From an uncultured Desulfuromonas sp. (GTDB lineage Bacteria; Desulfobacterota; Desulfuromonadia; Desulfuromonadales; Desulfuromonadaceae), in contig NZ_OY787469.1 of NCBI RefSeq assembly GCF_963678835.1, positions 2,418,001 through 2,482,000 of the forward strand: a stretch of 64,000 nucleotides of DNA. Direction: 5' to 3'. Shown piece by piece: positions 2 through 35,249 of this stretch. The stretch's first letter is position 1. Each line of letters starts with the position of its first letter. A program made the translations under genes and the position numbers. The notes beneath the pieces were generated by a model. The model was not told the origin of the DNA, did no database searches, and saw only the letters and a list, made by a program, of their open reading frames with translations.

Positions 2-1213
2 AAACAGGGGTTTGATCGGATCATTGACCGTTCTACGTCTGATGTCATTGACTTCAGTTACGCAGAGCAGGACTGGCGTGATTCACTGCTGGCTGCATTT
101 CCACACGAAGTTGCTGCCATTGATCGCTTTCAGCAGACGGTGTTGTCTATTTGTGATTCTTTGCCGTATCTCAATAATAACAAGACCTTTGGCGAAGAAG
201 GGTTATTTGCTCACGGTCAGGATGTCAGCCTGCAGGCGTTTGTTGCGGAATTAACGCAGGATTTTCGTTTGCGCGCGGCATTGTGTATGCATTGTTTACT
301 GCATGGCACCCCCCCGGACCAGATTCCACTGCGTCTTCATGCGGCAGTGGTTGGCCCTTATTGTCGTTCGGTACATGGTGTTCGTGGCGGGGGTGAGCAG
401 TTAAGTCAGGCGTTTGACGATTGTCTGCAACAGGCCGGTGTTGACCTGTTTTGCTCTTCTACGGTGACGGCCATGTCCGTGGGGCATGAGGGCGAGATTG
501 CCGGTGTTCTTCTCGCCTCCGGGCAGCAACTTGTTGCCAAGCAGGTTATCCATGCTGCGGACCCGCGCCTGTTGCTTGACTGGCTCGATGAACGCTGTTT
601 TCGTCCGGTGTATCGACGCCGTCTGGCCGCATTGCAGGAAACACAGTCTGCTCTGGTGTTGTTTGGTCGCAGTGCGCAACCCGTTGATGCGTTGGCGGGC
701 CGGAATTTGTATTTGGCGGACCTTCAACAGGGAACGCAGTTGTTTTCCGGAACCATTGCTCAGCGCCCTTTGTACCTGTCCTCTGCCGGACAGGGCTGTG
801 GCATCATCGGCATCATGCCGGAAGATTATGGGCGCTTTAAGCCCTGGCAAAACAGCTGTCGCGGCCAGCGTCCTGACGACTATCGGCACTTAAAACAGCA
901 GTGCTGTGAGCAGGTTCTGGAGCGCATTGAACAGGATGTGCCGGAGGTCGCACAAGCGCTTCAGCAGTCGTTTCTGGCCACGCCGCTGACGTTGCGGGAT
1001 TATTTGCACTACCCGCACGGCGCTGTGTATGGAATCAGCCATCAGTTGGCCCAATACCCCCTGCAGGTGGCCACTCGGGTGCGGGGACTCTATCTTTCGG
1101 GACAGGCCTTGGCGGCACCTGGATTGATGGGGGCGATGGTCGGTGCTTTTTATACCTGTGGCACCTTATTAGGACATCAACGCGTTGCAGAGGAGTTGAA
1201 CCAGTGGCATTAA
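2..1213 (+). CDS. CrtI-like (phytoene desaturase family) FAD oxidoreductase, 5' end outside window
   Basis: The reading frame is open from base 2, so the start and the N-terminal FAD-binding Rossmann motif lie to the left of the window. What is visible is about 403 residues of a CrtI/phytoene desaturase-type flavoprotein: a mid-region with GVRGGGEQLSQAF (typical of the part that selects the monomer chain and FAD), VIHAADPRLLLDWL, and a C-terminal end GLYLSGQALAAPGLMGAMVG that matches the family's conserved FAD-contacting tail. Such enzymes desaturate or isomerise polyene chains. The stop overlaps the next ketosynthase start by 10 bp, so it is part of the cluster. The substrate is unknown; it could act on the polyketide chain rather than on a carotenoid. 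Confidence 0.8.
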   Translation, partial: KQGFDRIIDRSTSDVIDFSYAEQDWRDSLLAAFPHEVAAIDRFQQTVLSICDSLPYLNNNKTFGEEGLFAHGQDVSLQAFVAELTQDFRLRAALCMHCLLHGTPPDQIPLRLHAAVVGPYCRSVHGVRGGGEQLSQAFDDCLQQAGVDLFCSSTVTAMSVGHEGEIAGVLLASGQQLVAKQVIHAADPRLLLDWLDERCFRPVYRRRLAALQETQSALVLFGRSAQPVDALAGRNLYLADLQQGTQLFSGTIAQRPLYLSSAGQGCGIIGIMPEDYGRFKPWQNSCRGQRPDDYRHLKQQCCEQVLERIEQDVPEVAQALQQSFLATPLTLRDYLHYPHGAVYGISHQLAQYPLQVATRVRGLYLSGQALAAPGLMGAMVGAFYTCGTLLGHQRVAEELNQWH

Positions 1214-2439
1214 ACAGAGTTGTGATCACCGGGATGGGAGCCGTTTCTCCATTTGGCGCAACCGTTGCTGATCTGCTCAGCGGGCTGTATGAAGGACGAA
1301 GCGCTGTAGCTTATTATGAAGCGTTACGCCAGGTCCAGGGGTTGCGCAGTTTGGTGGCCAGTCGCGTTCACGGCATTGACCCAAAGCAGATTGCCCGCAA
1401 GCATCGCCGTTCTATGTCGAAAATGTCGATTTACGCCACGCTTGCGGCAACCGAGGCCATGGCGCAGGCCGGAATTGACGAAAAGCTCTGTGCGTCAGGC
1501 GAGCTGGGGGTGGCGGTCGGTTCCACTGTCGGCAGCACTGAAGTAACTGAAGCTTTTTTTGAAGACTATTTTACCGACCACAGCCTTGAACGGATGAAAT
1601 CGACGCTGTTTTTTCAGATGATGAACCACACCTGTGCGTCCAACATTGCTCAAACGTTTAATATCACCGGTCGTCTCCTCGCGCCTTCGGCGGCCTGTGC
1701 CACAGGGAGTCAGGCGATCGGTTACGGCTATGAGATGATTGCTCAGGGCCATCAGCAGATGATGCTGTGTGGCGGTGCCGATGAACTGCATCCCTTGACC
1801 TGTGCCACCTTCGATGTGATGCATGCAGCTTCCACCGCCTACAATGATCAGGCGCAGCAGACGCCTCGACCCTTTGCCGCAGATCGCGACGGGATGGTGT
1901 GTGGTGAAGGCAGCGGTGTTGTCGTTCTTGAGTCGTTGGACTCCGCCCTTCGTCGTCAAGCCAATATCCTCGGTGAGGTGATTGGTTTTGCGACGGTTTC
2001 TGATCCGGGAAATATTGCCAATCCCGATGCACGGGTGATGGCGCACTGTATCCGTAAAGCCCTTGAGGCGGCAAATATTGATGCAGCCCAAGTCGATTAC
2101 GTCAATGCTCATGCCACGGCAACGGAGCAGGGGGATATTGCTGAGAGTCAGGCTATTGGTGACGTGTTTGACACCCCCGTGGCCGTAAGCAGCCTCAAAG
2201 GACATCTTGGACACACCATGGCTGCCAGTGGTGCCTTGGAGACGATTGCCACTGTCGACATGCTTCAGCAGGGCAAACTGATACCGACTCTGCACCTTGA
2301 AGATGTTGATCAGCGTTGTTGTGAACTCAATTATATCAAGAAGATAGAAGAAAAACCTTTAAGTTTTGCATTAAAAAATAATTTTGCTCTTGGCGGGGTG
2401 AATACCTCACTGGTTTTAAGGAGATATGACCATGACTGA
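1204..2439 (+). CDS. FabF-type beta-ketoacyl-ACP synthase (active triad present)
   Basis: 411-residue KAS II/FabF-like condensing enzyme. The N terminus VVITGMGAVSPFG is the family signature. The catalytic Cys is C165 in PSAACATGSQ, the first His is H303 in NAHATAT, and the second is H337 in KGHLGHT with K332, so it should be active in decarboxylative Claisen condensation of malonyl-ACP onto an acyl chain. It starts with GTG (MALNRV) inside the end of the CrtI-like gene, and its end overlaps the ACP gene, which suggests translational coupling. In aryl-polyene-type clusters a stand-alone ketosynthase like this performs an initiating or an elongating condensation; which one cannot be told from sequence alone. 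Confidence 0.93.
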   Translation: MALNRVVITGMGAVSPFGATVADLLSGLYEGRSAVAYYEALRQVQGLRSLVASRVHGIDPKQIARKHRRSMSKMSIYATLAATEAMAQAGIDEKLCASGELGVAVGSTVGSTEVTEAFFEDYFTDHSLERMKSTLFFQMMNHTCASNIAQTFNITGRLLAPSAACATGSQAIGYGYEMIAQGHQQMMLCGGADELHPLTCATFDVMHAASTAYNDQAQQTPRPFAADRDGMVCGEGSGVVVLESLDSALRRQANILGEVIGFATVSDPGNIANPDARVMAHCIRKALEAANIDAAQVDYVNAHATATEQGDIAESQAIGDVFDTPVAVSSLKGHLGHTMAASGALETIATVDMLQQGKLIPTLHLEDVDQRCCELNYIKKIEEKPLSFALKNNFALGGVNTSLVLRRYDHD

Positions 2440-2686
2440 ACAGGAAATCATCACCACGGTCAATACGGCCCTGGCGGAAGAATTTGAACTCGATCTGGAT
2501 GAAATGACCCCGGATGTATCACTGTATGAGGATCTGGGACTCGACAGTCTGGATACCGTAGATATGGTCATTGTTCTTGAAGGGGCGTTCAAGTTCAAGA
2601 TTCGTGAAGAAGCCGATGTCAAAGAGATCCGCACTCTGGGTGATATCCACGCGTTTGTTGCCAAGAAACTTGCTGCCGAATCCTGA
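2432..2686 (+). CDS. Acyl carrier protein (first of three)
   Basis: 84-residue acidic ACP with the phosphopantetheine attachment motif LGLDSLDTVDMV; the modified serine is S39. Two in-frame ATGs lie 6 bp apart. The one at 2432 is preferred because AGGAG ends about 9 bp upstream of it, while the ATG at 2426 is too close to that site. It overlaps the ketosynthase stop by 8 bp and abuts the acyltransferase. Its place between ketosynthase, acyltransferase and adenylating enzyme suggests that it carries the starter or the growing chain. The window has two further ACPs (21752 and 27813), so separate ACPs may serve starter and extender units. Confidence 0.93.
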   Translation: MTEQEIITTVNTALAEEFELDLDEMTPDVSLYEDLGLDSLDTVDMVIVLEGAFKFKIREEADVKEIRTLGDIHAFVAKKLAAES

Positions 2687-2692
2687 TTGTTC

Positions 2693-3481
2693 ATGAACAC
2701 TTATTCTCTGCTGCACGGAATCGCCATGAATGTCTGGATCTATAGCCTGCTGGTTCTGTGGACGGTACTTGGTCTATTTTTGAGTCCATTTCAGACGGCC
2801 TATCTGCGTCTGCGTCATCATTGGCCCGTTGACCGCGCTGTGCGTCACCTTATCTGGCTGTATGGGCGTGGTTGGCTGTTGCTGATCTCCCCGTTTGTGT
2901 CATTTTCTCGCGAAGGATTGACAGCGTCGGAGCTTCCTGAGCGCTGTGTGTTTGTCATCAACCATCTGTCGTTTTTTGATACCTATTTCATGGCGGCATT
3001 GCCGCACAGCGACGTTACTTTTGCCGTGCGTTCCTGGCCTTTTAAAATGTTTTGGTATCGTCTGTTCATGCGTTTGGCCAACTATCTTGAAGTGGAAGAT
3101 CTCAGCTGGCAACAAACCACGGAACGTGGCAAAGACATTTTGAAAAATGGCGGTTCCGTTCTGTTCTTTCCCGAGGGCCATCGCAGCCGCGATGGGAAAA
3201 TACAACGTTTTTATTCCGGTGCCTTTCAACTTGCCGTGGCGGCCCAATGTCCCGTGGTCCCTTTATGTATTACCGGTACCGATGTATTGCTGCCGCCAGG
3301 CCGTAAATGGTTGCGTCCGTGCCGGGTTCAGTTGCAGATTCTTGCGCCGGTGGCTGTGGATGATTATCAGTATGAGGGGGGGCATCTGGCTTTAAAGAAG
3401 AAAGTCAAAGCGGACATGGTTGAAGCGTTGGAAAAAATGACGGTGATGCAGGCCGCCGAGGTTGAGGTGGTGTCATGTTGA
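2693..3481 (+). CDS. PlsC-type 1-acylglycerol-3-phosphate O-acyltransferase family protein
   Basis: About 262 residues with an N-terminal membrane segment (roughly residues 12-32, rich in L/V/W) followed by a lysophospholipid acyltransferase domain. The catalytic HX4D motif is seen in NHLSFFDTYF and the acceptor-binding motif in FFPEGHRSRDG. The start could be TTG at 2687 or ATG at 2693; ATG is chosen. It probably transfers an acyl chain from ACP or CoA to a glycerolipid or related hydroxyl acceptor at the inner membrane. In this cluster the donor could be the finished aryl-polyene or modified acyl chain, which is inference. The 3' end overlaps the next gene by 7 bp. Confidence 0.85.
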   Translation: MNTYSLLHGIAMNVWIYSLLVLWTVLGLFLSPFQTAYLRLRHHWPVDRAVRHLIWLYGRGWLLLISPFVSFSREGLTASELPERCVFVINHLSFFDTYFMAALPHSDVTFAVRSWPFKMFWYRLFMRLANYLEVEDLSWQQTTERGKDILKNGGSVLFFPEGHRSRDGKIQRFYSGAFQLAVAAQCPVVPLCITGTDVLLPPGRKWLRPCRVQLQILAPVAVDDYQYEGGHLALKKKVKADMVEALEKMTVMQAAEVEVVSC

Positions 3482-4794
3482 GTTGCAGTGAACAACTGGC
3501 TTTTGCCGCCCCTGACGTGATCCGTGAGCAGCAGCAGATGTTGTTGCGGCAACATGTGGATTACATTGCCGGCCATTCCCGTTTTTATCAACGTATGGCG
3601 CGTGAGTATGGGATTGACCTTCGCGATGTCCGTTGTTATGACGACCTGGCCGAGCTGCCGTTTACCACCAAGGCCGATCTTGAGCAATACGGTGATGAGT
3701 TTCTCTGTGTTGAAGAACGTCAGGTGGCGGATATCTGTCTGACTTCCGGTACCACCGGCTTGCCCGTAGCGTTTATGCAGAGTCGTGACGATCTCGAACG
3801 GCTGTCATTTAATGAACAGTTGGCGTTTACCACTGCGGGGTTAACAGCGGACGACAGGGTGTTGATTGCAGCCGCCATTGATCGCTGTTTTATGGCTGGA
3901 ATGGCGTATTTTCTCGGCTTGAAAAAGATCGGGTCCACGGTGATTCGAGGCGGGTCGAGTTCGGTTTCCGTGGTGGCGCAGTTGATTGAACGGTTTCGCC
4001 CAAACGCGCTGGTAGGTGTGCCGACGCTGTTTCTCGCCCTGGCTCAGATTTTGCGCCAAAAAGGGATCGACCCACGCCAGTGTGGCGTCAAAAAACTGGT
4101 GTGCATTGGTGAGCCGGTGCGTCATCAGAATTTGACGCTGTCTGTTTTGGGCGAACGTCTGCAAGACCAGTGGGGCGCGGAAGTTTACGGTACCTATGCC
4201 AGCACTGAAATGGCCACGACCTTTGTCGATTGCAGCTGTGGCTGTGGCGGTCATTTGCCACCCGAGCTGATGGCGGTTGAGATCGTTGACGATCAGGGAA
4301 AGCGTGTTGCCGCCGGTCAAGCCGGTGAAGTTGTGGCCACACCACTTCAGGTGACGGGCATGCCGTTATTGCGTTTCAAAACAGGTGATGTGGCGACGCT
4401 TTACTGTGATCCCTGTGAGTGTGGACGCAACAGTTGGCGGATTGGTCCGGTGTTGGGGCGTAAAAACCAAATGCTCAAGTATCGCGGAACCACGGTGTAT
4501 CCCCCGGCGATCTTTGCGGTGTTGCAGGAGCTCAAAGAGGTTCAGGCGTTTTATATTGAAGTGCGCGACGATTATGCGCTGTCCGATCAGATTAAAGTGG
4601 TGGTTGGCAGCAGTTGCTCAGAGCTGACGTCGCATCATATTGAGGAGCTGTTGGCGGCACGCATTCGGGTCAAGCCCGAAGTGGTGATTGAGGATGTGGA
4701 TACGGTGCGGAGCCAGACCATGCAGGAAGATAAACGTAAGCCGGTGACGTTTTTTGATTATCGCACTTCTGGTGTTGGTGGAAGTGTCGTTTAA
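3475..4794 (+). CDS. PaaK/CapK-like adenylate-forming ligase (predicted aryl starter-activating enzyme)
   Basis: 439-residue phenylacetate-CoA-ligase-type AMP-binding protein. The nucleotide-binding loop is LTSGTTGLPVAF (around residue 91), followed by YGTYASTEM and FKTGDVATLYC. Paired cysteine clusters (CSCGCGG and CDPCECGR) resemble the structural cysteines of the PaaK family. It should adenylate an aromatic or small carboxylate and pass it to CoA or to an ACP. With an ammonia-lyase in the same cluster, 4-coumarate or cinnamate is the most economical substrate guess. It is shorter and more divergent than the two PaaK-like enzymes at 33479 and 35250, which fits a specialised role. The 607-bp repeat block begins right behind it. 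Confidence 0.8.
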   Translation: MLSCSEQLAFAAPDVIREQQQMLLRQHVDYIAGHSRFYQRMAREYGIDLRDVRCYDDLAELPFTTKADLEQYGDEFLCVEERQVADICLTSGTTGLPVAFMQSRDDLERLSFNEQLAFTTAGLTADDRVLIAAAIDRCFMAGMAYFLGLKKIGSTVIRGGSSSVSVVAQLIERFRPNALVGVPTLFLALAQILRQKGIDPRQCGVKKLVCIGEPVRHQNLTLSVLGERLQDQWGAEVYGTYASTEMATTFVDCSCGCGGHLPPELMAVEIVDDQGKRVAAGQAGEVVATPLQVTGMPLLRFKTGDVATLYCDPCECGRNSWRIGPVLGRKNQMLKYRGTTVYPPAIFAVLQELKEVQAFYIEVRDDYALSDQIKVVVGSSCSELTSHHIEELLAARIRVKPEVVIEDVDTVRSQTMQEDKRKPVTFFDYRTSGVGGSVV

Positions 4795-5049
4795 AGCTTC
4801 TTGTGTTGGACCACAGTTATTGAGCACCAAAGCTCTTCCGCTCAGCAGCGCCGAACAAGGGAGCTGAAGCCCCGTCACGTGCGTGCCACGAACGTGAACG
4901 GATGAGCAATTGGTTCCATCTTATGGACTACGGCAAATGCCAAACCAAGGTCAAGATCGCCGGGATTCGCCCCGGCAGGCGACATCCTTTTGGCAAGCCG
5001 CCCAAAAGGATGCAAAAGCCGGCCAGGGGTTCACAGTGATTTCTTAACT

Positions 5050-5656
5050 TGGATAGGATGGGTCGTTTTCCGTTATGCTTCACTGATTCGGCTCGTTGCC
5101 CTTTAGGTCAACGAATCGTGCTTCTCATGAGCAGTGGTATTGACGGTGATAACTCTCGTGATTTTGATCAACCAAGTTGTGCTGGCACCCCGGCAAAGAG
5201 GGAGTGGGCTTTGCCCACCCCACGGGCACTGACGTTGAACAGAACGCCAATTTTGAATATTGCTCCCAAGCTCTCCCGTACTGCAGCGCCGAACGCAAGG
5301 AGCTGGAGCCGTGATGATCGTCGGCAACTGTTTGAGCGTCAGCGAGTTTTGCCGACATCACGGCGGAAGCGGATGGAGTGAGGGAACTCGAAGAGCGCGA
5401 AGCCCGGGAGTCGATTTTGCGTTCCTTTTGTCGACGCAAAAGGGACCCGAGTGTGGGCGCGGAAGCCCACGTCACGTGGGCACCAACAATGCGAACGGAT
5501 GAAGTCCGCCGGAGCGGTTTGTTCCGTATGGTGGACCACAGAAGAACAAAATCAAGGTCAAGATCGCCGGGATTCGCCCCGGCAGGCGACATCCTTTTGG
5601 CAAGCCGCCCAAAAGGATGCAAAAGCCGGCTAGGGATTCACAGTGATTTCTTGACT
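5050..5656 (+). repeat. 607-bp repeat, copy A
   Basis: First complete unit. It begins at TGGATAGGATGGGTCG and ends just before the same anchor recurs at 5657. It differs from copy B mainly at the segment after the conserved ACGAATCGTGCTTCT stretch (about 5118-5175) and at about 5246-5270, while the central part around the GTCGAC hairpin is nearly identical. Part of the unit (about 5206-5241) is reused in the tail after copy C. Confidence 0.85.
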
Positions 5657-6263
5657 TGGATAGGATGAGTCGTTTTCCGTTATGCTTCACTGATTCGGCT
5701 CGTTGCCCTTTAGGTCAACGAATCGTGCTTCTTCTCAGCGATGGCATTGACGGTGATAAAAAACAGGAGCTTGATCAACCACGTTGTGCTGGCACCCCGG
5801 CAAAGAGGGAGTGGGCGTTGCCCACCCCACGGGCACTGACGTTGAACAGAGCCGCATTGGTCGGCATCGCACCCAAGCTCTCCCGTACTGCAGCGCCGAA
5901 CGCAAGGAGCTGGAGCCGTGATGATCGTCGGCAACTGTTTGAGCGTCAGCGAGTTTTGCCGACATCACGGCGGAAGCGGATGGAGTGAGGGAACTCGAAG
6001 AGCGCGAAGCCCGGGAGTCGATTTTGCGTTCCTTTTGTCGACGCAAAAGGGACCCGAGGTGTGGGCGCGGAAGCCCACGTCACGTGGGCACCAACAATGC
6101 GAACGGATGGAGTTCGCCGGAGCAATTTGTTCCGTATGGTGGACCACAGAAGAACAAAATCAAAGTCAAGATCGCCGGGATTCGCCCCGGCAGGCGACAT
6201 ACTTTTGGCAAGCCGCCCAAAAGGATGCAAAAGCCGGCTAGGGATTCACAGTGATTTCTTGAT
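5657..6263 (+). repeat. 607-bp repeat, copy B
   Basis: Second complete unit, the same length as copy A to the base. It is closer to copy C than to copy A in the variable stretch after the conserved ACGAATCGTGCTTCT segment (both carry the AAACAGGAGCTTGATC variant), which suggests that B and C arose by the later duplication. Confidence 0.85.
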
Positions 6264-6760
6264 TTAGATAGAATGGGTCGTTTTCCGTTATGCTTCACTG
6301 ATTCGGCTCGTTGCCCTTTAGGTCAACGAATCGTGCTTCTTCTCAGCGATGGCATTGATGGTGATAAAAAACAGGAGCTTGATCAACCAAGTTGTGCTGG
6401 CACCCCAGCAAAGAGGGAGTGGGCGTTGCCCACCCCACGGGCACTGACGTTGAACAGAGCCGCATTGGTCGGCATCGCATCCAAGCTCTCCCGTACTGCA
6501 GCGCCGAACGCAAGGAGCTGGAGCCGTGATGATCGTCGGCAACTGTTTGAGCGTTAGCGAGTTTTGCCGACATCACGGCGGAAGCGGATGGAGTGAGGGA
6601 ACTCGAAGAGCGCGAAGCCCGGGAGTCGATTTTGCGGTACTTTTGTCGACGCAAAAGTGCCCCGACGTGCGGGCGCGGAAGCCCGCGTCATGTGCGTACC
6701 AACAATGCGAACGGATGAAGTCCGCCGGGAGCGGTTTGTTTCGTGATGCGGACCACAGGC
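6264..6760 (+). repeat. 607-bp repeat, copy C (3'-truncated)
   Basis: Third unit, starting at TAGATAGAATGGGTCG. It follows copy B to about the GGACCACAG position (485-487 bases into the unit), with more substitutions toward its end (the GTCGAC hairpin arms have changed to GTACTTTTG/CAAAAGTGC, keeping complementarity). It then breaks off into a tail with a GTGGGC/GCCCAC hairpin at about 6778-6800. Confidence 0.8.
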
Positions 6761-6987
6761 GATCAAGATCAAAATCAGTGGGCTTTGCCCACCCCACGGG
6801 CATTAAAGTTGAACCGCCCGTGATGTGTGAGCAAATTCACGACACGTGCGTAGCCGCTGACGTGAACGGGCGAGCCTGTTTGAAGTGATCTGATTGTTGT
6901 GGCATGTGAAGGAACCATTTTACGTGTTTCACTGTATTTATGAACGTTTGAGACAAGATTTTTATCTGAAATGACGAGGGAAAGAAA

Positions 6988-8574: not shown

Positions 8575-8594
8575 TCTCCAGGGAGGGAAAACGG

Positions 8595-9658: not shown

Positions 9659-9669
9659 CGGACAGACGG

Positions 9670-13093: not shown

Positions 13094-13106
13094 GGGATAG
13101 AGGTTT

Positions 13107-15381: not shown

Positions 15382-15497
15382 CTGGGCCGGGAGTGTCGTT
15401 GGATAGGACAAAACAGCAGGGCTTCGCGTTGAACGCGTCCATCTGCTGATACGATAACGAATGAACGCATAAAGGGAACAAAAAGGGAGAACAATCG

Positions 15498-19580: not shown

Positions 19581-19584
19581 TAAG

Positions 19585-20784: not shown

Positions 20785-21716
20785 CCGGACAGACAAGTGA
20801 AAAATTGGCTGAACCAACCAGCGAACAGGTGCAACGGCCCCTTGGCTCAAAGCTGGGTTATCAGGCGTTTTATGTGATGATTCGCAGTGGCGGACGGCGG
20901 GCGGCATACGCACTGTTGTATTTTGTCGTCGCCTTTTATATTCTGTTTCGCCCCCAGGTGCGGCGCAGTTGTCGACCATACCTCAAGCGGCGCTTTGTGG
21001 AGGCCGGTGAAGATGGCCTGTGGTGGCACAGCTACCGGATGGTCCTCGATTTCGGCAAGGTGCTGGTCGATCGGGCCGTGGTCGGCATGCTCGGGCCTGA
21101 CCGGCTCAAGGTGGCCCTGCACGGACGGGAGCAATTGCTGGAGATCCGCAATCGCCGTCAGGGGATGATCCTGATGATGTCGCATGTCGGCTGTTGGCAG
21201 GTGGCTATGTCGGCGCTGAACTTTCTTGAAGAGCCGGTGCATATGGTGATGCATCAGGATGACGGCAGTCTGGAGCGGCACTATTACGAATATGCCGAAC
21301 AGGAATGCCCCTATCGCACCATTGATCCACGTGGTTTCCTTGGTGGCACTCTGGAGATGATGGGGGTGTTGAAACAGGGCATGATTCTGGCGGTGATGGG
21401 CGACCGGCTGCCGCCCCATGAGCGTAATGTGGTGACGGTGGAGTTTCTCGGTGAAGCTGTGGCGCTGCCGTTCAGTTCGTTTCAGTTGGCATCGGCTACC
21501 GGGGCACCGATTGTGGTGATGATGACGCGTAAAAGCGCCGGTGATCGCTATGAAATGGAGTTGATCGACGAGATTCGCGTGCCACAGGGGTTGGGACGCA
21601 AAGCCGAGGCTTATCGACCTTATGTGCAACAGTATGCGGATGCCCTGGCCGGTTATTGCCGGGAAAATCCGTATCAGTTTTACAATTTCTTTGATATGTG
21701 GGATGACTGTAAATAA
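20781..21716 (+). CDS. LpxL/HtrB-type lysophospholipid acyltransferase-like protein
   Basis: 311 residues from ATG 20781 (GGGGAAT upstream, ATGA overlap). A membrane anchor at about residues 33-53 (AYALLYFVVAFYILF) is followed by the acyltransferase domain. The active-site motif HX4(D/E) is altered: MSHVGCWQVA reads His-x4-Gln, compared with HLGNWE in LpxL. GDRLPPHERN and FSSFQLASATGAPIV are other family landmarks. It may be an active variant or a binding-only protein. Similar genes are present in aryl-polyene clusters, where they may attach the polyene to a glycan or lipid. Confidence 0.82.
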   Translation: MTGQTSEKLAEPTSEQVQRPLGSKLGYQAFYVMIRSGGRRAAYALLYFVVAFYILFRPQVRRSCRPYLKRRFVEAGEDGLWWHSYRMVLDFGKVLVDRAVVGMLGPDRLKVALHGREQLLEIRNRRQGMILMMSHVGCWQVAMSALNFLEEPVHMVMHQDDGSLERHYYEYAEQECPYRTIDPRGFLGGTLEMMGVLKQGMILAVMGDRLPPHERNVVTVEFLGEAVALPFSSFQLASATGAPIVVMMTRKSAGDRYEMELIDEIRVPQGLGRKAEAYRPYVQQYADALAGYCRENPYQFYNFFDMWDDCK

Positions 21717-21751
21717 GTTAGTGGAATCAACCGTTTTGAACAGGAGACATT

Positions 21752-22003
21752 ATGACAACCAAGGAAAAACTCAAAAATATTCTGGTTGAAGATCTCAACC
21801 TTGAGGATATCACACCGCAAGAGATTGCCGACGATGAGCCGTTGTTCGGTGAAGGCCTCGGCCTGGATTCGCTCGATGCCGTTGAACTGGTGGTGCTGGT
21901 TCAGAAGCATTTTGGTGTCGAGATTAAGGATATGGAAGAGGGCCGTCCGGCTCTGCAATCCATCAACAGCTTGGCTGAATTCATCGAAGCCAATCAGGAG
22001 TAA
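21752..22003 (+). CDS. Acyl carrier protein (second of three)
   Basis: 83 residues, strongly acidic, with the phosphopantetheine site GLGLDSLDAVELV at S40. SD GGAG (AACAGGAGAC) lies 8-10 bp upstream of ATG 21752. The ketosynthase gene starts 4 bp after its stop. The ACP-KS-CLF order (21752-24280) is a compact type II polyketide core, so this ACP is the likely carrier of the growing chain for that pair. Confidence 0.94.
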   Translation: MTTKEKLKNILVEDLNLEDITPQEIADDEPLFGEGLGLDSLDAVELVVLVQKHFGVEIKDMEEGRPALQSINSLAEFIEANQE

Positions 22004-22007
22004 ATAA

Positions 22008-23195
22008 ATGGCAAATCGCATTGCGGTGACCGGAATCGGCTGCCTGAGTGCAGCGGGCAACACCTTGGAACAAGCGATGGCGTCCATGCTGGGCGGCGAG
22101 CGCCATGGTGGTGATCCTTTACGATTTACGACCACGCACGCTGATGTCTATCCGGTGTTTTCCATCGCTGACGACTTTGAGCAGGTTAGTCAGCGTGACA
22201 TGTTGCGCACCAGCCGCCTTGGTCTGGCTGCCGCCGGGCAGGCCGTGACCCAATCGGGGTGGTCTCTGGAGGCATTACGTGGTCTGCGGGTCGGGGTGTG
22301 TATGGGCACCACGGTGGGCAGTGCGATGAACAACGAGCCGTTTTATGCCGGTTACCGTGATGGAGAGTCGCCGGAGATGACACCGATCAATCGTTTTCTC
22401 GGCAGCAATCCGGCTGCGGTGATCAGTCGTCATTTCGGTTTTAACGGTCCGACTCAGACCATTGTCAATGCCTGTTCCTCGGGCACGGATGCCATCGGAC
22501 TGGCTTCGGCGTGGATTCAGTGCGGATTGTGCGATGTGGTGTTGGCTGGCGGTGCGGATGAGTTGTGTCGTACCACCTATAACGGGTTCGCCTCGTTGCA
22601 GATCAGTTCGACAAGGCTGTGTCGTCCGTTTGATGCCGAGCGCAGTGGCTTGAACTTGGGCGAAGGCGCCGGGGTGTTGGTGCTCGAATCGGATGCCAGT
22701 GCCCGCCATCGCCAGGTTGCGGCTCAGGGCTATATTCTCGGTTATGGCAGCGGTACTGATGGCTGGCATCTGACGGCACCACATCCGGAGGGGCGAGGCC
22801 TCAAGCAGGCGCTGGCCGAAGCATTGCGTGTCAGTCGCGTGCAACCGAAGCAACTGGGGTTTGTCAATACCCACGGTACGGGGACCAAAGACAATGATCG
22901 GGTGGAAAGTCTGGTGCTGCGTGACTGTCTCAAAGGACTTCCGTTTCATTCCACCAAGGGCTACACTGGCCATACCCTCGGCGCGGCTGGGGCGATTGAG
23001 GCGGCTTTTGTCCTCGGGTTTTTACAGCGGGGAAAAATTCCTGCCAGTGCCGGGTTTACGACCATGGATGATGAGTTGGCGACAGTGCCGGTAACGCAAG
23101 TGCATGAGTTTGATAGTTCGTTGGCGCTGTCTGAATCACTGGCGTTTGGTGGTAACAATGCCGTGCTGGTGTTTGAGCGCGGGGAGGTGGTGTGA
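22008..23195 (+). CDS. Beta-ketoacyl-ACP synthase (KS alpha-like, triad present)
   Basis: 395 residues. Catalytic residues are C156 in NACSSGTDAIG, H289 in NTHGTGTKDND and H322 in KGYTGHTLGAAG. All KS landmarks are intact. The gene lies directly between an ACP and a Cys-less ketosynthase partner, so it should form a KS/CLF-like heterodimer that controls elongation and chain length. Its stop overlaps the GTG preceding the partner's ATG. Among the three complete ketosynthases of the cluster this one has the clearest partner. Confidence 0.93.
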   Translation: MANRIAVTGIGCLSAAGNTLEQAMASMLGGERHGGDPLRFTTTHADVYPVFSIADDFEQVSQRDMLRTSRLGLAAAGQAVTQSGWSLEALRGLRVGVCMGTTVGSAMNNEPFYAGYRDGESPEMTPINRFLGSNPAAVISRHFGFNGPTQTIVNACSSGTDAIGLASAWIQCGLCDVVLAGGADELCRTTYNGFASLQISSTRLCRPFDAERSGLNLGEGAGVLVLESDASARHRQVAAQGYILGYGSGTDGWHLTAPHPEGRGLKQALAEALRVSRVQPKQLGFVNTHGTGTKDNDRVESLVLRDCLKGLPFHSTKGYTGHTLGAAGAIEAAFVLGFLQRGKIPASAGFTTMDDELATVPVTQVHEFDSSLALSESLAFGGNNAVLVFERGEVV

Positions 23196-24280
23196 TGAAT
23201 CTACTTTCTCAACCCGTTGCAATTCAAGGGATCGGTTGTGTCGGAGGTTTTGGTCAGGGGGGAGACGCCTTTATCCGCGCCCTTCAGCAGGAAACAGACC
23301 GACCACAGATACTCGACCAGTGCCATGGCGATGGGCAGGCCTATTACCCGGCCTTTTTCGCCAAAACCGATGGTCTGGATGAATTTGTTGCCAAGCGTTC
23401 TCTGCGCCGCCTTGATCATTATTCCCGCCTGGCGTTGCTCGGTGGTTGTATGGCGTTGGCCGATGCCGGAATTGATGCCGACAAACGGGAGAAGGTTGGC
23501 GTGATCGTCGCCAGCGGTTACGGGGCTGCGGCCACCACCTTTGGGTTTCTCGATTCAGTGCTGGAGGATGGTGATCACTGCGCGTCACCGACGGCATTTT
23601 CCAACTCGGTACACAATGTGGCCGGTGCCTATCTGTCAATGCAGTTGGGCATTCATGGGCCCAACCTGACCTTGAGTCAGTTTGACATGTCGGTAACGGC
23701 GGCGTTGCACAATGCCGTATGCTGGTTGCAGCAGGGCCGGGTGGATACGGTGCTGGTCGGCGGTGTTGATGAACATTGTGCCGTGCTCAACTACTGTTAT
23801 GGCCGTTATTTTGCTGATGAGCCGGTGCCTGAACGCATCGAGCCGTTTGCTTTCGATAAACAGACGGCGATCCCCGGCGAGGGGGCGGCGTTTCTGGTCT
23901 TAAGTCGTGATCCGAAAAAAGCACGCTATGGCTATATTGATGCTCTTTGTGGCGGTCATGTCGAGTCGGGCGGCGATGCGTTGATTCAGCGTTCTCCGGT
24001 GTTGCTCGGTGCCGATGGTCAGCGGCATAGTGCCTGTTGGTACCGCCAGAGTATCGGCACGCCGAAAACCAGTTGCAGTCATGTTTACGGCAGTTTGCCC
24101 TGTGGTCAGGCCTTTGATCTGGTGGCTGCTGCGCTCATGGTGCGCGACCAGCAATGTCATGCACTGAGTAGCCGAGAGGAAGAGTGCGCACCGATCCGTC
24201 AGGTGACCAGCATCAAGTGTGGTGCAGACGGTCAGTTTGGTGCCGTTCGGGTGACCCGAGGATTTGGGAAGGGACGTTAG
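23195..24280 (+). CDS. Chain-length-factor-like ketosynthase (no nucleophile Cys)
   Basis: 361 residues from ATG 23195 (GGGGAGG 7 bp upstream; the GTG at 23192 is an alternative). KS fold markers (VAIQGIGCVGGFG at the start, KVGVIVASGYGAA, RVDTVLVGGVDEH, PGEGAAFLVLS) are present, but the nucleophile region is LSQFDMSVTAAL, with no Cys in place, and the GHT motif is replaced by SHVYGSLPCGQAF. It is thus a non-condensing partner of the preceding ketosynthase, like KS beta/CLF or ApeC-type proteins, expected to set the chain-length pocket. It ends 5 bp before the next gene's ATG. Confidence 0.85.
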   Translation: MNLLSQPVAIQGIGCVGGFGQGGDAFIRALQQETDRPQILDQCHGDGQAYYPAFFAKTDGLDEFVAKRSLRRLDHYSRLALLGGCMALADAGIDADKREKVGVIVASGYGAAATTFGFLDSVLEDGDHCASPTAFSNSVHNVAGAYLSMQLGIHGPNLTLSQFDMSVTAALHNAVCWLQQGRVDTVLVGGVDEHCAVLNYCYGRYFADEPVPERIEPFAFDKQTAIPGEGAAFLVLSRDPKKARYGYIDALCGGHVESGGDALIQRSPVLLGADGQRHSACWYRQSIGTPKTSCSHVYGSLPCGQAFDLVAAALMVRDQQCHALSSREEECAPIRQVTSIKCGADGQFGAVRVTRGFGKGR

Positions 24281-24285
24281 AAATT

Positions 24286-24717
24286 ATGCGAGACAAGGAA
24301 GTACCCCAGGACAAGGGTGTTCTGGACGACAAAAAAGTGGTCAGTTATGCCTTGAACGATCAGGGGCGCTATTGCCTGACGCCCAGCGCCGGCTGGGAGC
24401 CGGTCAATTGCGCCAATCGTCTGGCGTGGGAAGATATTCAGGCGGAGTTGAAACTGGTGCGCGCCCAAATTGACAAGGGCGAGATGAGTCCTCTTGCCTA
24501 TTATATGACCCGTGCGCAGATGGATGTTGCTCTGTTGTCTCGTTACTCGGGCATAGCCCGCTGGCGGGTGCGTCGTCACCTGAAACCCAAGGTGTTTGAC
24601 AACCTGTCCACCTCTTACCGACAGTGTTACGCCGGGTTGTTCAATATTTCCGTAGAGCAGCTGCGTGAAGTTCCCGAACAGGATCAATTGCCCATGGCGG
24701 ATGAGGAGCAAGAATGA
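24286..24717 (+). CDS. Uncharacterised 143-aa protein with possible HTH region
   Basis: 143 residues from ATG 24286; a longer frame to 24184 is only a shadow overlapping the CLF gene. I do not recognise the family with certainty. The C-terminal half has a segment (MTRAQMDVALLSRYSGIARW, followed by RVRRHLKPKVFDNLS) that reads like an Xre-type helix-turn-helix plus its stabilising helix: 'alls rysgi arwrvrrhl' spacing is typical. The N-terminal half is acidic and polar without membrane or signal segments. It overlaps the next gene by ATGA inside the cluster, so it could be a cluster regulator or a small accessory factor. Confidence 0.6.
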   Translation: MRDKEVPQDKGVLDDKKVVSYALNDQGRYCLTPSAGWEPVNCANRLAWEDIQAELKLVRAQIDKGEMSPLAYYMTRAQMDVALLSRYSGIARWRVRRHLKPKVFDNLSTSYRQCYAGLFNISVEQLREVPEQDQLPMADEEQE

Positions 24718-25736
24718 CTGTTGATTTTCCTCATCGCCAATCGGCGCATTGTGAAAGTGGCGCGGTGGCCAATTTGCTGACCCATGCCGGATTGCCTGTT
24801 TCAGAAGCCATGGCCTTCGGCCTTGGCGGTGGGCTGTTTTTCGGCTATGTACCGTTTGTCAAACTCAATGGCTTGCCGTTGACCACCTATCGCTGCCGTC
24901 CGGGTGGCATTTTCAGCCGGGTGACCAAGGGGTTGCATTGCCCGGTGCATCAACAACGTTACCGCAGTCAACAGCAGGCCATGGATGATCTGGACCGGCT
25001 GCTTGCCGAAGGGGTTGCTGTTGGCGTTCAGACCAGTGTGTTCTGGTTGCCGTATATCCCCGCGGCACTACGTTTTCATTTTAATGCCCACAATTTGATT
25101 GTGATTGGTAAAGAGGGGTCTCGCTATCTGATCAGTGATCCGGTGATGCCGGAGCTGGTGTGGTGTGAGGCCGATGATCTGGTTAAAGCCCGCTTTGCTC
25201 AGGGCGCTCTGGCACCACGTGGCCGCTGTTATTATTTGAAAGAGCCGCCGCAGGTAACCGATCTGCGTCAACCGGCGTTGCGCGGCATGAAAATCGTCTG
25301 TCGCGACATGCAGGCTCCGGTGCCGGTGGGTGGCATTCGCGGCATGCGTTTTTTGGCTAAGAGTATGCGTCAATGGGAGCAACGTTACGGCACGCGCCGG
25401 GCCATTTCCTGTCTGGCGCAACTGATTCGCATGCAGGAGGAGATTGGCACCGGTGGCGCTGGCTTCCGTTTTATCTATGCGGCCTTCCTTCAGGAATGTG
25501 CGGAACTCTACGATCATCAGGCGTTGAGCGGCTTGGCCGAACGGTTGACCGAGATCGGTGATGGTTGGCGTGATTTGGCGGTGAATGCCGCCCGGCGCTG
25601 TAAGGGCCGTGATGATTCAATCACGTTTGATACTCTGGCTGATCAGGTTGCTCATCAGGCGGATGTTGAGGAACCGTTCTACCGTGATCTGCGACTGGTG
25701 GTGAAGGACGTGCAGCGAAAGTTGAAACAGGGATGA
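24714..25736 (+). CDS. BtrH-like (BtrH_N/DUF4872) acyltransferase-type protein
   Basis: 340 residues. The N-terminal half has the pattern of BtrH_N domains: HRQSAHCESGAVANLL near residue 13, with a candidate nucleophile Cys, and FNAHNLIVIGK with a candidate His near 125, as in cysteine-protease-fold acyltransferases. The C-terminal half matches DUF4872-like helical content. BtrH transfers an acyl group from an ACP onto an amino sugar in butirosin biosynthesis; the same chemistry would transfer an acyl chain from one of the three cluster ACPs to an amine or sugar acceptor. It overlaps both neighbours by ATGA and is followed directly by an ABC exporter. Confidence 0.75.
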   Translation: MTVDFPHRQSAHCESGAVANLLTHAGLPVSEAMAFGLGGGLFFGYVPFVKLNGLPLTTYRCRPGGIFSRVTKGLHCPVHQQRYRSQQQAMDDLDRLLAEGVAVGVQTSVFWLPYIPAALRFHFNAHNLIVIGKEGSRYLISDPVMPELVWCEADDLVKARFAQGALAPRGRCYYLKEPPQVTDLRQPALRGMKIVCRDMQAPVPVGGIRGMRFLAKSMRQWEQRYGTRRAISCLAQLIRMQEEIGTGGAGFRFIYAAFLQECAELYDHQALSGLAERLTEIGDGWRDLAVNAARRCKGRDDSITFDTLADQVAHQADVEEPFYRDLRLVVKDVQRKLKQG

Positions 25737-26482: not shown

Positions 26483-26483
26483 T

Positions 26484-27791
26484 ATGATCGGGCAACTGTG
26501 GGCGGTGATCGTCAAGGAACTGCAATTGCTGCGGCGCGACCGCGGGGGGCTGGCTGTGCTGTTTATCATGCCGGTGGCATTGGTGCTGGTGGTCTGTCTG
26601 GTTCAGGATAATATTCTTAAAACATCGGGAGCAGCCGCTGTTGATGTGCTGGTTGTTGATCATGATCAGTCCACTTTTGGGCCGTGGTTTATCAGTCAGT
26701 TGCAGCAACAGGGAGACGTGCGCGTTTCTGTGGCAACTGACGATCTTAGATTTGCCGAAGCGCAACGCCAGGTTGAACGGGGTGATTATCAATTCGGGGT
26801 CTATCTGTCGCCTCAGCTGAGCCACTCTCTGCAGCAGGCGGTGGACAGTCAGGTTCGACGACAGCTTTTCTCGCCTGCATCATCTCAAGACAGCGCAATG
26901 CCATCGTTATTCTACTCCTTTGATCCGGCGGTTCAGGGCGGCCTGCGTGCCGGATTGACCGGTCTGATCGATCAACTTGTCCGCCGCCATCGTGCCGAAT
27001 TATGCCTTGAGGCCTTTCAGCGCTACCTGCCGAAACGGGTCGAACATTATGTGACGGTGCAATTGGGACCGATGTTTTCTCAAGCACTGGCGCAACATCC
27101 GCTTGAGTTGGATGTGAGCGTTGAGTCCAGCGAAATGATGGTGGCTCCGCTGGAGAGCGAAGCGGGATTTACCATGCCCACGTCGATACAGCACAATGTT
27201 CCAGCCTGGTCCATCTTCGGACTGTTTTTTATTGTTCTGCCGCTGGCCACGGTGATGTTACAGGAGCGCTCTCAAGGAGTCTTTGTCCGTCTGCAGCTGA
27301 TCCCCGGTTCCATGGTGCCGCTTCTGGTCGGCCGAGTGGTGGCTTATCTGATGATCAGCCTGGTGCAGTTTGCATTGATGCTTGGTGTCGGTCGGACGCT
27401 GTTACCCCTGTTGGGAACCGACCATCTTGATCTTCACGGCCAGGTGCCGTCTTTGTTGGTTGTCAGTTTATGTGTTGCTCTGGCGGCCTGCGGTTTTGGT
27501 TTGTTGCTCGGTGTTTATGCCCGCAGCAGTCAGCAGGCCAGCTTGACGGCAGCTGTGACCATTGTTATTTTTGCCGCCCTTGGTGGGATCATGATCCCGG
27601 TCTATCTGATGCCAGAGGTGATGCAGCACGTCAGTGTCATTTCGCCGCTGGGCTGGGGGATGGAAGCCATGCAGATTCTCGTGTTGCGCGGTGGATGTTT
27701 GGCTGAAACCTGGCCGTATCTGTTGCGGTTGGTGATCTGCTTTATTGTCTGTTGTTTTTTTGCCTGGCGCGGCTTGCGTCGGCGCTGTTGA
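26484..27791 (+). CDS. ABC-2 family membrane permease
   Basis: 435 residues. One N-terminal TM helix (about residues 23-43, AVLFIMPVALVLVVCLVQD), a large periplasmic loop to about 245, then five or six TM helices to the end (SIFGLFFIVLPLATVMLQERSQG, LVVSLCVALAACGFGLLLGV, TIVIFAALGGIMIPVYL), the ABC2 membrane-type layout with the conserved ERSQG after the second helix. It pairs with the preceding ATPase, probably as a homodimer-forming exporter. A small gap and a strong SD (AGGGAGG) lead to the last ACP. Confidence 0.92.
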   Translation: MIGQLWAVIVKELQLLRRDRGGLAVLFIMPVALVLVVCLVQDNILKTSGAAAVDVLVVDHDQSTFGPWFISQLQQQGDVRVSVATDDLRFAEAQRQVERGDYQFGVYLSPQLSHSLQQAVDSQVRRQLFSPASSQDSAMPSLFYSFDPAVQGGLRAGLTGLIDQLVRRHRAELCLEAFQRYLPKRVEHYVTVQLGPMFSQALAQHPLELDVSVESSEMMVAPLESEAGFTMPTSIQHNVPAWSIFGLFFIVLPLATVMLQERSQGVFVRLQLIPGSMVPLLVGRVVAYLMISLVQFALMLGVGRTLLPLLGTDHLDLHGQVPSLLVVSLCVALAACGFGLLLGVYARSSQQASLTAAVTIVIFAALGGIMIPVYLMPEVMQHVSVISPLGWGMEAMQILVLRGGCLAETWPYLLRLVICFIVCCFFAWRGLRRRC

Positions 27792-27812
27792 TTTTTTTAG
27801 GGAGGACGTGTC

Positions 27813-28079
27813 ATGAGTCGTCAACAACTCTATCGTGAGTTACAAGATCTAATTATCGAAGCCTGCCATATTCAGGAGGAGTATCCTGATCTGATCGATC
27901 CGCAGGTCTCGTTGATCGGTCCGGATTCCCCTCTGGGGCTGGATTCGCTGGATGCTGTGGAGATCGTTGTTGCTGTGCAGCGTCATTATAATGTGCGCAT
28001 CGGTGGGGAAGACACCGGCCGTGAAGCACTGGATACGTTGAACGCCCTGGCGGATTTTGTTGAATCTCACACATCTTAG
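27813..28079 (+). CDS. Acyl carrier protein (third of three)
   Basis: 88 residues with phosphopantetheine motif LGLDSLDAVEIVVAVQ at S45. ATG 27813 follows GGGAGG. Its N-terminal helix is longer than in the other two (SRQQLYRELQDLIIEACHIQ). It stands after the ABC exporter and is the last gene of the cluster, so its partner enzymes are not obvious; loading of the starter or feeding of the BtrH-like transferase are possibilities. Confidence 0.93.
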   Translation: MSRQQLYRELQDLIIEACHIQEEYPDLIDPQVSLIGPDSPLGLDSLDAVEIVVAVQRHYNVRIGGEDTGREALDTLNALADFVESHTS

Positions 28080-33451: not shown

Positions 33452-33478
33452 CTGTCAATGGTTAAAAAGAGGTGACGC

Positions 33479-35240: not shown

Positions 35241-35249
35241 CTGGACAGG

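What the first reader, a model, noticed from the sequence alone, without database searches (positions are those of the whole stretch)
2..28079. Aryl-polyene/flexirubin-like cluster hybridised with three radical SAM proteins and a CrtI-like desaturase
Aryl-polyene-type parts (ammonia-lyase, adenylating ligase, two KS/CLF-like pairs plus a lone KS, two hot-dog dehydratases, thioesterase, LolA, MMPL, DUF3261) share one overlapping operon with three consecutive B12-type radical SAM genes, a CrtI-like desaturase, a GT2-DUF2062 fusion, a BtrH-like transferase and an ABC exporter. CrtI-like desaturase with B12/radical SAM and multiple FabF/ACP genes recalls the ladderane-candidate clusters of anammox bacteria, so an aromatic-primed, radically modified lipid could be made here. 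The product is unknown to me.
Basis: partly seen in the sequence, partly recalled or inferred. Interest (0 to 1): 0.85.

Follow-up and report, generated by a model that had tools for sequence, protein, structure and literature searches.

The report
Anaerobic flexirubin-like pigment-lipid gene cluster
A long gene cluster in a bacterium from an oxygen-avoiding group looks like an oxygen-free version of the pathway for flexirubin-like yellow-orange membrane pigments, and it carries an enzyme family linked to the exotic ladderane lipids, so those enzymes may work on pigment-like chains.

Summary
The cluster is real, starts about 2.3 kb left of the window (fabG, a ketosynthase and the start of the CrtI-like gene lie outside) and ends with the ACP at 28079. 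Much of its left part matches aryl-polyene type II PKS genes. 24184-24717 is DarG family and the "BtrH-like transferase" is DarH, a name from dialkylresorcinol/flexirubin clusters. In this genome the pair lies about 88 kb away; in 14 of 20 relatives picked for inspection it lies directly beside the cluster. Of 277 genomes, 52 have DarB, 51 DarH, 48 both; 25 of these 48 have the two within 10 kb. Four DarB-less relatives lack DarG, DarH, the ABC exporter and the last ACP. Best reading: an aryl-polyene acid joined by DarH to a DarB-made ring, sent to the outer membrane and tailored by B12 radical-SAM enzymes, one of NCBIfam's "ladderane" family TIGR04072. PUFA/hydrocarbon genes (pfa, ole) lie elsewhere. 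Several flexirubin cut-offs are missed and DarA is untested, so it is not filed as flexirubin. A cyclised, ladderane-like lipid is not excluded but has no direct support. No product is known.

The parts
2..1213 (+). CrtI/CrtD-like FAD desaturase or isomerase, C-terminal 403 codons; the gene starts at about -319. Upstream, outside the window: KS1 (about -1488 to -253) and fabG (about -2264 to -1527).
   Evidence: AF2 of an orthologue pLDDT 88, Foldseek top 4rep gamma-carotenoid desaturase; no PDB sequence match at 0.001; fabG FlxB 304.5 bits, cut-off 340
1204..2439 (+). KS2, ApeR-type ketosynthase with C-H-H triad
   Evidence: 41% identity to E. coli CFT073 ApeR; only PDB hits below 1e-70 are 4ewg and 7f27; triad
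2426..2686 (+). ACP1
   Evidence: PF00550, DSL motif, 41% to ApeF
2687..3481 (+). PlsC-type acyltransferase (AT1)
   Evidence: PF01553; no BLAST match to ApeD
3475..4794 (+). AMP-forming aryl acid ligase, FlxY-like
   Evidence: FlxY_rubin 495.7 bits, cut-off 520
4831..6814 (+). Genome-wide ~607-bp repeat, about 3.5 copies, inserted in the operon
6988..8574 (+). MIO aromatic ammonia-lyase (starter supply, likely tyrosine ammonia-lyase)
   Evidence: PF00221; closest PDB tyrosine aminomutase 2rjr; ASG, SH and NQD motifs; FlxA and hutH cut-offs both missed
8565..9035 (+). hot-dog dehydratase, ApeP-like
   Evidence: 31% to ApeP, E 1.6e-5; weak FabZ; no Pfam match
9020..9658 (+). LolA-type periplasmic carrier
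   Evidence: PF03548; LolA2_flexi 97.9 bits, cut-off 125
9670..12054 (+). MMPL/RND exporter
   Evidence: PF03176; ApeM match E 2e-11
12021..12728 (+). lipoprotein in the ApeN/DUF3261 position
   Evidence: position; weak LPAM_1 and LolB hits only
12701..13093 (+). FabA-like dehydratase, ApeI-like
   Evidence: PF07977; ApeI E 0.004
13107..13568 (+). 4HBT thioesterase, ApeK-like
   Evidence: PF13279; ApeK 28%, E 2e-14
13565..14701 (+). KS3 ketosynthase
14698..15381 (+). CLF3, short chain-length factor without catalytic Cys (Arg at that column, as in ApeC)
15498..16763 (+). rS1, B12-binding radical-SAM protein, highly conserved, no NCBIfam family over cut-off
   Evidence: AF2 pLDDT 68, Foldseek top AprD4 6fd2
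16760..18133 (+). rS2, TIGR04072 rSAM_ladder_B12
   Evidence: 698.5 bits, cut-off 360; closest PDB TsrM 6wte
18096..19580 (+). rS3, HpnJ/BchE-like B12 radical-SAM protein (under those cut-offs)
   Evidence: closest PDB AprD4 6fd2
19513..20784 (+). GT2 glycosyltransferase fused to DUF2062 (ApeJ N-terminal half)
   Evidence: ApeJ 36%
20760..21716 (+). LpxL-type acyltransferase (ApeJ C-terminal half)
   Evidence: ApeJ 25%, E 2e-16
21752..22003 (+). ACP2
   Evidence: 44% to ApeE
22008..23195 (+). KS4, ApeO-like ketosynthase
   Evidence: 33% to ApeO over 398 aa
23192..24280 (+). CLF4, chain-length factor (Asp at the Cys column)
24184..24717 (+). DarG-family protein
   Evidence: NF053536 139.4 bits, cut-off 70
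24714..25736 (+). DarH, BtrH-related acyltransferase (proposed ester coupling)
   Evidence: NF053550 463.6 bits, cut-off 300; single copy in the genome
25733..26482 (+). ABC exporter ATPase
26484..27791 (+). ABC-2 permease
27813..28079 (+). ACP3, end of operon. The partner genes DarB (StlD/DarB family) and a B12 radical-SAM gene lie outside the window at C1:2534588-2535721 (-) and just upstream of it, about 88 kb to the right.

Best explanation
The cluster encodes an anaerobic, flexirubin-like aryl-polyene lipid. Proposed steps: the ammonia-lyase makes 4-coumarate (or cinnamate) and the FlxY-like ligase activates it. The ApeR-like KS2 and the KS3/CLF3 and KS4/CLF4 pairs, with FabG and two dehydratases on ACP1/ACP2, extend it to a conjugated polyene. 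The CrtI/CrtD-like flavoprotein adjusts double bonds (desaturation or isomerisation). DarB, encoded elsewhere in this genome but beside the cluster in relatives, with ACP3 condenses two fatty-acyl units to a cyclohexanedione/resorcinol-type ring. DarH, with DarG, transfers the polyene acyl group from ACP to that ring; GT2 and the acyltransferases make or load a lipid anchor. The ABC exporter, MMPL, LolA and lipoprotein move the product to the outer membrane. Four B12 radical-SAM proteins (three here, one beside DarB) do oxygen-free tailoring, most likely C-methylation. Shown here: gene identities, conservation, the linkage of DarB to the cluster and the block-wise presence or absence of the Dar genes. 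Inferred: every reaction, the order of steps and the structure.
For: Ape counterparts by BLAST against E. coli CFT073: ApeR-KS2 41%, ApeQ-fabG 45%, ApeO-KS4 33%, ApeJ-GT2 36% and AT2 25%, ApeK, L, M, E, F, P. KS2's only PDB hits below 1e-70 are 4ewg and 7f27; PMC8358021 (passages) calls 4EWG an ApeR homologue. DarG family and DarH are over curated cut-offs; DarH rings in 0 of 14 control genomes. A StlD/DarB-family KS (548 bits, cut-off 450) sits next to a B12 radical-SAM gene in the same genome; closest PDB is StlD, 393 bits. Class-wide, 277 genomes: DarB 52, DarH 51, both 48; DarB with an rS1 orthologue 49 of 52; DarB with the lyase 41 of 52. Of the 48 with DarB and DarH, 25 have them within 10 kb, 6 on one contig farther apart (this genome among them), 17 on different contigs. 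Of 20 relatives fetched, chosen with these coordinates in view, 14 have DarB and its radical-SAM partner 165-2037 bp from ACP3 and convergent to it; G034 and G089 have DarB farther off; the 4 without DarB (G062, G163, G191, G258) lack DarG, DarH, both ABC genes and ACP3 in the fetched stretch and have no DarH match anywhere. The Azoarcus dar cluster also holds BtrH-like, ABC and ACP genes (PMC3949708, gene table in passage). C. pinensis FlxA is HAL-like at motif 1 yet acts as TAL (PMC3992019, passages).
Against: Several flexirubin cut-offs are missed: FlxA 471.9 of 700, FlxY 495.7 of 520, FlxB 304.5 of 340, LolA2_flexi 97.9 of 125, flexirubin_DarG 135.4 of 170, DarB 'exception' model 451.7 of 550; LolB2_flexi has no match in the genome. 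ApeA, B, C, D, G, H and N have no convincing BLAST match. No DarA was recognised beside DarB, and DarA was not tested genome-wide. 11 of 52 DarB genomes have no lyase at E 1e-120; the 10 of them searched have only 200-224-bit ligase paralogues, so an aryl starter is not universal. DarB could make a free signal or lipid rather than an ester partner. Fisher tests ignore phylogeny. No product is known.
Confidence: 0.6

Rival explanations
1. Aryl-polyene pigment lipid without a Dar ring: the polyene acid is fixed to a glycolipid anchor as in ordinary APE clusters, and the DarB/DarH/ABC module makes and exports a separate alkyl-cyclohexanedione or resorcinol.
For: The polyene part occurs without the Dar block in G062, G163, G191, G258. 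GT2/AT2 resemble ApeJ. DarB lies about 88 kb from the cluster in this genome.
Against: DarG and DarH overlap each other, and DarG overlaps CLF4, in the same operon. DarB and DarH are within 10 kb in 25 of 48 genomes with both, and 49 of 52 DarB genomes have an rS1 orthologue.
Confidence: 0.22
2. Ladderane-like lipid: radical-SAM enzymes and the CrtI-like protein cyclise a polyene into fused rings.
For: rS2 is TIGR04072 rSAM_ladder_B12. Rattray 2009 lists SAM, phytoene dehydrogenase, ligase, GT and membrane-protein genes in Kuenenia (PMC2649909, Results and Discussion parts read).
Against: Rattray found no ladderanes in Desulfotalea psychrophila, which has a similar cluster. The closest solved relatives of rS2 and rS3 are TsrM and AprD4. 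The other genes fit APE/flexirubin families.
Confidence: 0.1
3. PUFA / polyunsaturated hydrocarbon pathway, as Rattray 2009 proposed for the Desulfotalea cluster.
For: FASII-like cluster with CrtI-like protein and radical-SAM enzymes (PMC2649909).
Against: This genome carries a PfaA-type PUFA synthase (over the family cut-off with its neighbours in the frame) and an oleABCD-like run (the OleC-type protein is under the olefin beta-lactone synthetase cut-offs, 669 of 850 and 657 of 900) at other loci. An ammonia-lyase, DarH and Lol parts have no evident role in that pathway.
Confidence: 0.05

Closest known systems
Flexirubin flx/dar clusters (Chitinophaga pinensis, Flavobacterium johnsoniae; PMC3992019 passages)
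   Same: Ammonia-lyase, FlxY-like ligase, several ketosynthases, SDR, dehydratases, LolA, GT, acyltransferase, exporter, a DarB-family gene; DarG by NCBIfam name
   Different: CrtI-like protein and 3+1 B12 radical-SAM genes; DarA not recognised; no SAM methyltransferase or halogenase domain among the operon proteins scanned; scores under most flexirubin cut-offs; host group of anaerobes (recalled)
Arcuflavin arc/dar clusters of Azoarcus sp. BH72 (PMC3949708, passages with gene table)
   Same: Polyene genes in blocks separate from the dar block; dar block with BtrH-like, ABC ATPase and permease, ACP
   Different: There the starter comes from a XanB2-type enzyme; here an ammonia-lyase; no radical-SAM gene in the printed table
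E. coli CFT073 aryl polyene cluster (apeA-R)
   Same: ApeR, Q, P, O, M, L, K, J, F, E counterparts
   Different: No ammonia-lyase, Dar, CrtI-like or radical-SAM gene in its gene table (PMC8253772 passages); ApeA, B, C, D, G, H, N without convincing BLAST match here, though CLF, acyltransferase and ligase genes fill some of those roles
Ladderane-candidate FASII clusters of anammox bacteria and Desulfotalea (PMC2649909)
   Same: Radical-SAM, phytoene dehydrogenase-like, phenylacetate-CoA-ligase-like, GT, membrane-protein genes and many FabF paralogues; NCBIfam names the rS2 family after ladderanes
   Different: No ammonia-lyase, DarB or DarH mentioned in the parts read; anammox sequences were not compared here

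Membership tests
Aryl polyene (APE) type II PKS cluster | KS with a short CLF partner lacking the catalytic Cys | tested here: met
   CLF3 has Arg and CLF4 Asp at the Cys column; KS1-KS4 keep C-H-H. BLAST to ApeC itself is not significant
Aryl polyene (APE) type II PKS cluster | second, ApeR-type ketosynthase and ApeQ-type reductase | tested here: met
   KS2 41% to ApeR, fabG 45% to ApeQ; PDB hits 4ewg, 7f27
Aryl polyene (APE) type II PKS cluster | two hot-dog dehydratases ApeI and ApeP | tested here: inconclusive
   ApeP match E 1.6e-5, ApeI match only E 0.004
Aryl polyene (APE) type II PKS cluster | LolA, MMPL, LolB-like export set | tested here: inconclusive
   LolA and MMPL met; ApeN/DUF3261 not detected by Pfam or BLAST
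Aryl polyene (APE) type II PKS cluster | aryl polyene product | not testable with these tools
   needs chemistry
Flexirubin pathway | tyrosine ammonia-lyase FlxA equivalog | tested here: not met
   471.9 bits, cut-off 700; an ammonia-lyase of unproven substrate is present
Flexirubin pathway | FlxY ligase equivalog | tested here: not met
   495.7 bits, cut-off 520
Flexirubin pathway | DarH acyltransferase and DarG family | tested here: met
   463.6 of 300; 139.4 of 70, though flexirubin_DarG 135.4 of 170 is missed
Flexirubin pathway | DarB ring-forming ketosynthase in the genome | tested here: inconclusive
   StlD/DarB subfamily met (548 of 450), DarB exception model not met (451.7 of 550)
Flexirubin pathway | DarA aromatase | not tested
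   Accession unknown to me; two guessed NCBIfam accessions were other families. Three neighbours of DarB in the own genome scanned with NCBIfam gave no DarA name
Ladderane-candidate cluster | TIGR04072 radical-SAM protein | tested here: met
   698.5 bits, cut-off 360
Ladderane-candidate cluster | ladderane product / anammox host | not testable with these tools
   The nearest lyase relatives are mostly Desulfuromonadales MAGs; product unknown

The most novel reading that the evidence does not exclude
The TIGR04072 radical-SAM enzymes act on conjugated polyenes made by aryl-polyene-type KS/CLF systems and stitch or cross-link them. Anammox ladderane clusters would then be descendants of aryl-polyene machinery, and the Desulfuromonadales cluster would make a related aromatic-ended, radically cyclised polyene lipid that can be studied in pure culture.
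Probability: 0.12. Interest if true: 0.92.

Novelty: new variant of a known kind. Interest (0 to 1): 0.6.

Why it matters
Clusters annotated as 'ladderane' in non-anammox bacteria have unknown functions (PMC9902471, passages). Showing that one cluster carrying the TIGR04072 gene looks like an aryl-polyene/Dar system, present in a cultured species, gives a concrete product class to look for and a handle on what TIGR04072 enzymes do. It also suggests that flexirubin-like membrane pigments exist in anaerobes, with B12 radical-SAM chemistry standing in for aerobic tailoring.

Tried and rejected
Rejected: ladderane product as first choice; PUFA/hydrocarbon role (pfa and ole loci found elsewhere); a chance neighbourhood of unrelated genes (conserved order). 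My early label 'DH2' for 24184-24717 was wrong; it is DarG family. The ~607-bp repeat was checked as a possible RNA element: no Rfam match over the gathering score in that stretch; it is a genome-wide repeat.

Led nowhere: plasmid searches for DarH and DarB neighbours, meant to yield a DarA sequence; guessed NCBIfam accessions for DarA; first guess of the E. coli ape coordinates; one failed script (redone). The rS1 model has low confidence (pLDDT 68), so its fold match is only supportive. Celluxanthene clusters (PMC12144888, parts 1 and 2 of 4 read) use an iterative type I PKS and are not this system. The short 'TAL(52)' match for G232 was not examined further; that genome is not among the lyase hits. 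The 20 relatives were picked after seeing the coordinates, so 14 of 20 is not a frequency; one search gives the class-wide count from the listed places.


Full report
What is there. The window is C1:2418001-2482000 of a 4.5-Mb genome. Its nearest lyase relatives in the species collection are mostly Desulfuromonas and Desulfuromonadales MAGs (94% downward; the tool says very near genomes may be left out). That this group is anaerobic is recalled. The reported gene set is present. The operon starts outside the window with fabG, KS1 and the first 107 codons of a CrtI-like gene and runs, mostly with overlapping or closely spaced genes, to ACP3 at 28079. The one large break is a 2,193-bp gap between ligase and lyase, filled by a ~607-bp repeat with 168 matches in the genome. 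Of the 13 relatives where the gap could be measured, 11 have -1 to 129 bp, G191 has 576 bp, and G034 of the same genus has 936 bp with a repeat copy.

Names. KS2 is ApeR-like; KS4 and part of KS3 are ApeO-like; fabG is ApeQ-like; GT2 plus AT2 match the two halves of ApeJ; ApeE, F, K, L, M and P have matches, ApeI only weakly, and ApeA, B, C, D, G, H and N have no convincing BLAST match. PDB hits of KS2 below 1e-70 are 4ewg and 7f27 only; PMC8358021 (passages) identifies 4EWG as an ApeR homologue. KS1-KS4 keep Cys-His-His while the CLFs have Arg and Asp at the Cys column. The ligase is FlxY-like, just under the cut-off. The lyase has the MIO Ala-Ser-Gly, SH at one selectivity motif and NQD. C. 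pinensis FlxA was described as HAL-like at motif 1 and TAL/PAL-like at motif 2, and is a TAL (PMC3992019, passages). That our NQD is that second motif, and SH the first, is my recalled alignment. 24184-24717 is DarG family and 24714-25736 is DarH, both over cut-off. The second radical-SAM protein is TIGR04072 rSAM_ladder_B12 at 698.5 bits. The first is under Pfam's radical-SAM cut-off and stands on its CX3CX2C motif and fold match.

The missing partner. The own genome has 4 matches to the KASIII C-terminal family. One, at C1:2534588-2535721, is StlD/DarB family (548 bits, cut-off 450; the stricter DarB model gives 451.7 of 550) and stands beside a B12 radical-SAM gene. It lies about 88 kb from the end of the cluster. 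Twenty relatives were fetched, chosen with hit coordinates in view. In 14 the DarB + radical-SAM pair lies 165-2037 bp from ACP3, convergent to the operon. In G034 and G089 DarB is farther off. In G062, G163, G191 and G258 no DarB was found at E 1e-40; DarG, DarH, both ABC genes and ACP3 are missing from the fetched stretch, and those genomes have no DarH match. In G148 DarG and DarH stand at the other end of the cluster.

Class-wide counts, 277 genomes. DarB 52, DarH 51, lyase 55 at E 1e-120. rS1 orthologues: 66, being the genomes with a listed match of at least 60% identity among 155 with any match at 1e-40. The other 89 I dropped as paralogues; those listed have 32-38% identity, and some were below the listing, so short orthologous fragments could be missed. 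DarB and DarH together 48; DarB only G028, G061, G127, G213; DarH only G086, G126, G134; DarB with rS1 49; DarB with lyase 41. Of the 48 genomes with DarB and DarH, 25 have them within 10 kb, 6 on one contig farther apart (G000, G034, G035, G067, G089, G148) and 17 on different contigs; of the 49 with DarB and rS1, 17 have them within 20 kb, 4 farther on one contig and 28 on different contigs. Many assemblies are fragmented, so different contigs are uninformative. Fisher p-values (2.9e-45 for DarB/DarH) ignore shared ancestry. Eleven DarB genomes have no lyase at the cut-off; ten of these were searched for the ligase and have best FlxY-family scores of 200-224 bits against 495 here. In G079, G094 and G232, and in DarB-less G062, the site between AT1 and the dehydratase holds only a few hundred bases. 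So lyase and ligase are missing together and the starter module is separable; what primes those systems is unknown.

Other loci that bear on rivals. The same genome has a PfaA-type synthase at C1:2641643 (over the family cut-off with its neighbours in the frame) and an oleABCD-like run at C1:2748905-2753581 (the OleA-type and OleC-type proteins pass PRK09258 and PRK09274, the latter under the olefin beta-lactone synthetase cut-offs, and OleD rests on position and reading only). These can account for polyunsaturated hydrocarbons without this cluster, against the proposal of Rattray 2009 for the similar Desulfotalea cluster. Whether Desulfotalea has such loci was not checked.

Wider spread. Of 58 lyase loci I count 47 with at least three further window-cluster genes in the fetched DNA; L042 has two, and ten have none or only weak matches. 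They include Geomonas isolates, Desulfuromusa kysingii, Desulfobacterales, and MAGs labelled Planctomycetes, Phycisphaerales and Victivallales. rS1 is among the most conserved proteins (median 75% identity in 17 contexts, after ACP2 with 78 and the lyase with 77; CrtI-like only 38), so the radical-SAM genes look like core parts. They are not all indispensable: G163 keeps only rS3, G191 rS2 and rS3, G258 rS1 and rS2.

Folds. A CrtI-like orthologue models well (pLDDT 88) and matches gamma-carotenoid desaturase 4rep and CrtI 4dgk first; by sequence alone no PDB chain matched. The rS1 model is weak (68); its best match is AprD4 6fd2, then TsrM. The closest solved sequences are TsrM for rS2 and AprD4 for rS3. 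The chemistry of such families varies (recalled), so the reaction cannot be read from them.

Mechanism. Aryl starter, polyene chain on ACPs, ring from DarB, acyl transfer by DarH, outer-membrane transport by Lol/MMPL/ABC parts, B12 radical-SAM tailoring. Gene identities and linkage are shown; every reaction is inferred. The Azoarcus arcuflavin system is a precedent: polyene genes at azo0253-0264 and azo3910-3921, dar genes in their own block azo0283-0293 with BtrH-like, ABC and ACP genes (PMC3949708, gene table in a passage).

Literature. Rattray 2009 (abstract, part 1 of Results, part 1 of Discussion read) already reported similar clusters in Geobacter and Pelobacter. PMC9902471 (passages) reports 'ladderane' clusters in Desulfobacterota and other phyla with unknown function. 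Searches: aryl polyene with Geobacter (two papers, one opened at passages, neither title on this cluster); ladderane, arylpolyene and Geobacter (none); flexirubin, resorcinol and aryl polyene with Desulfuromonas, Pelobacter, Geobacter (84 papers, 20 listed, all 20 with zero for flexirubin, dialkylresorcinol and aryl polyene); ladderane with aryl polyene (53 papers, 20 listed; 28, 20 listed, of which PMC11968836 and PMC8358021 were then opened at passages). In what I saw, no paper links this cluster to flexirubin. The library holds open-licence papers only, so this is not proof of absence.

Verdict. A conserved aryl-polyene-type II PKS cluster in a Dar-linked, radical-SAM-rich variant. It looks as if it works like a flexirubin pathway but is not filed as one, because several flexirubin cut-offs are missed and DarA is untested.

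Noticed in passing
window 4831-6814: A ~607-bp repeat, about 3.5 tandem copies, sits inside the operon; 168 matches genome-wide; no Rfam match over the gathering score there.
   Followed up: partly
window 31114-36581: Ferredoxin-dependent 2-oxoacid oxidoreductase genes (TPP/POR, Fer4 domains) followed by two AMP-binding genes with AMP-binding_C_2 domains (phenylacetate-CoA-ligase type) and an ACT-domain gene; arylpyruvate metabolism next door to the aryl pathway, maybe coincidence.
   Followed up: partly
G079, G094, G232, G062 contexts (L130-L135, L138-L139): Clusters without ammonia-lyase and ligase but otherwise largely complete; the chain starter there is unknown.
   Followed up: partly
L129:15503-16990: Polysaccharide deacetylase and SAM-methyltransferase domains in one open frame near the GT2/DarB end of the cluster in G178; deacetylase genes are also listed for flexirubin, arcuflavin and Kuenenia clusters in the papers read.
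   Followed up: partly
L134:11399-12913: In G232 the CrtI-like gene sits between the two ABC genes instead of near KS2.
   Followed up: partly
L129:10014-11717: A carbamoyltransferase gene lies between ACP3 and DarB in G178.
   Followed up: no
G067 C8: DarB lies about 13 kb on the other side of rS1 from DarH, unlike most relatives with both on one contig.
   Followed up: no
window 51486-51579: L20-Deltaproteobacteria ribosomal protein leader (Rfam RF03126).
   Followed up: no
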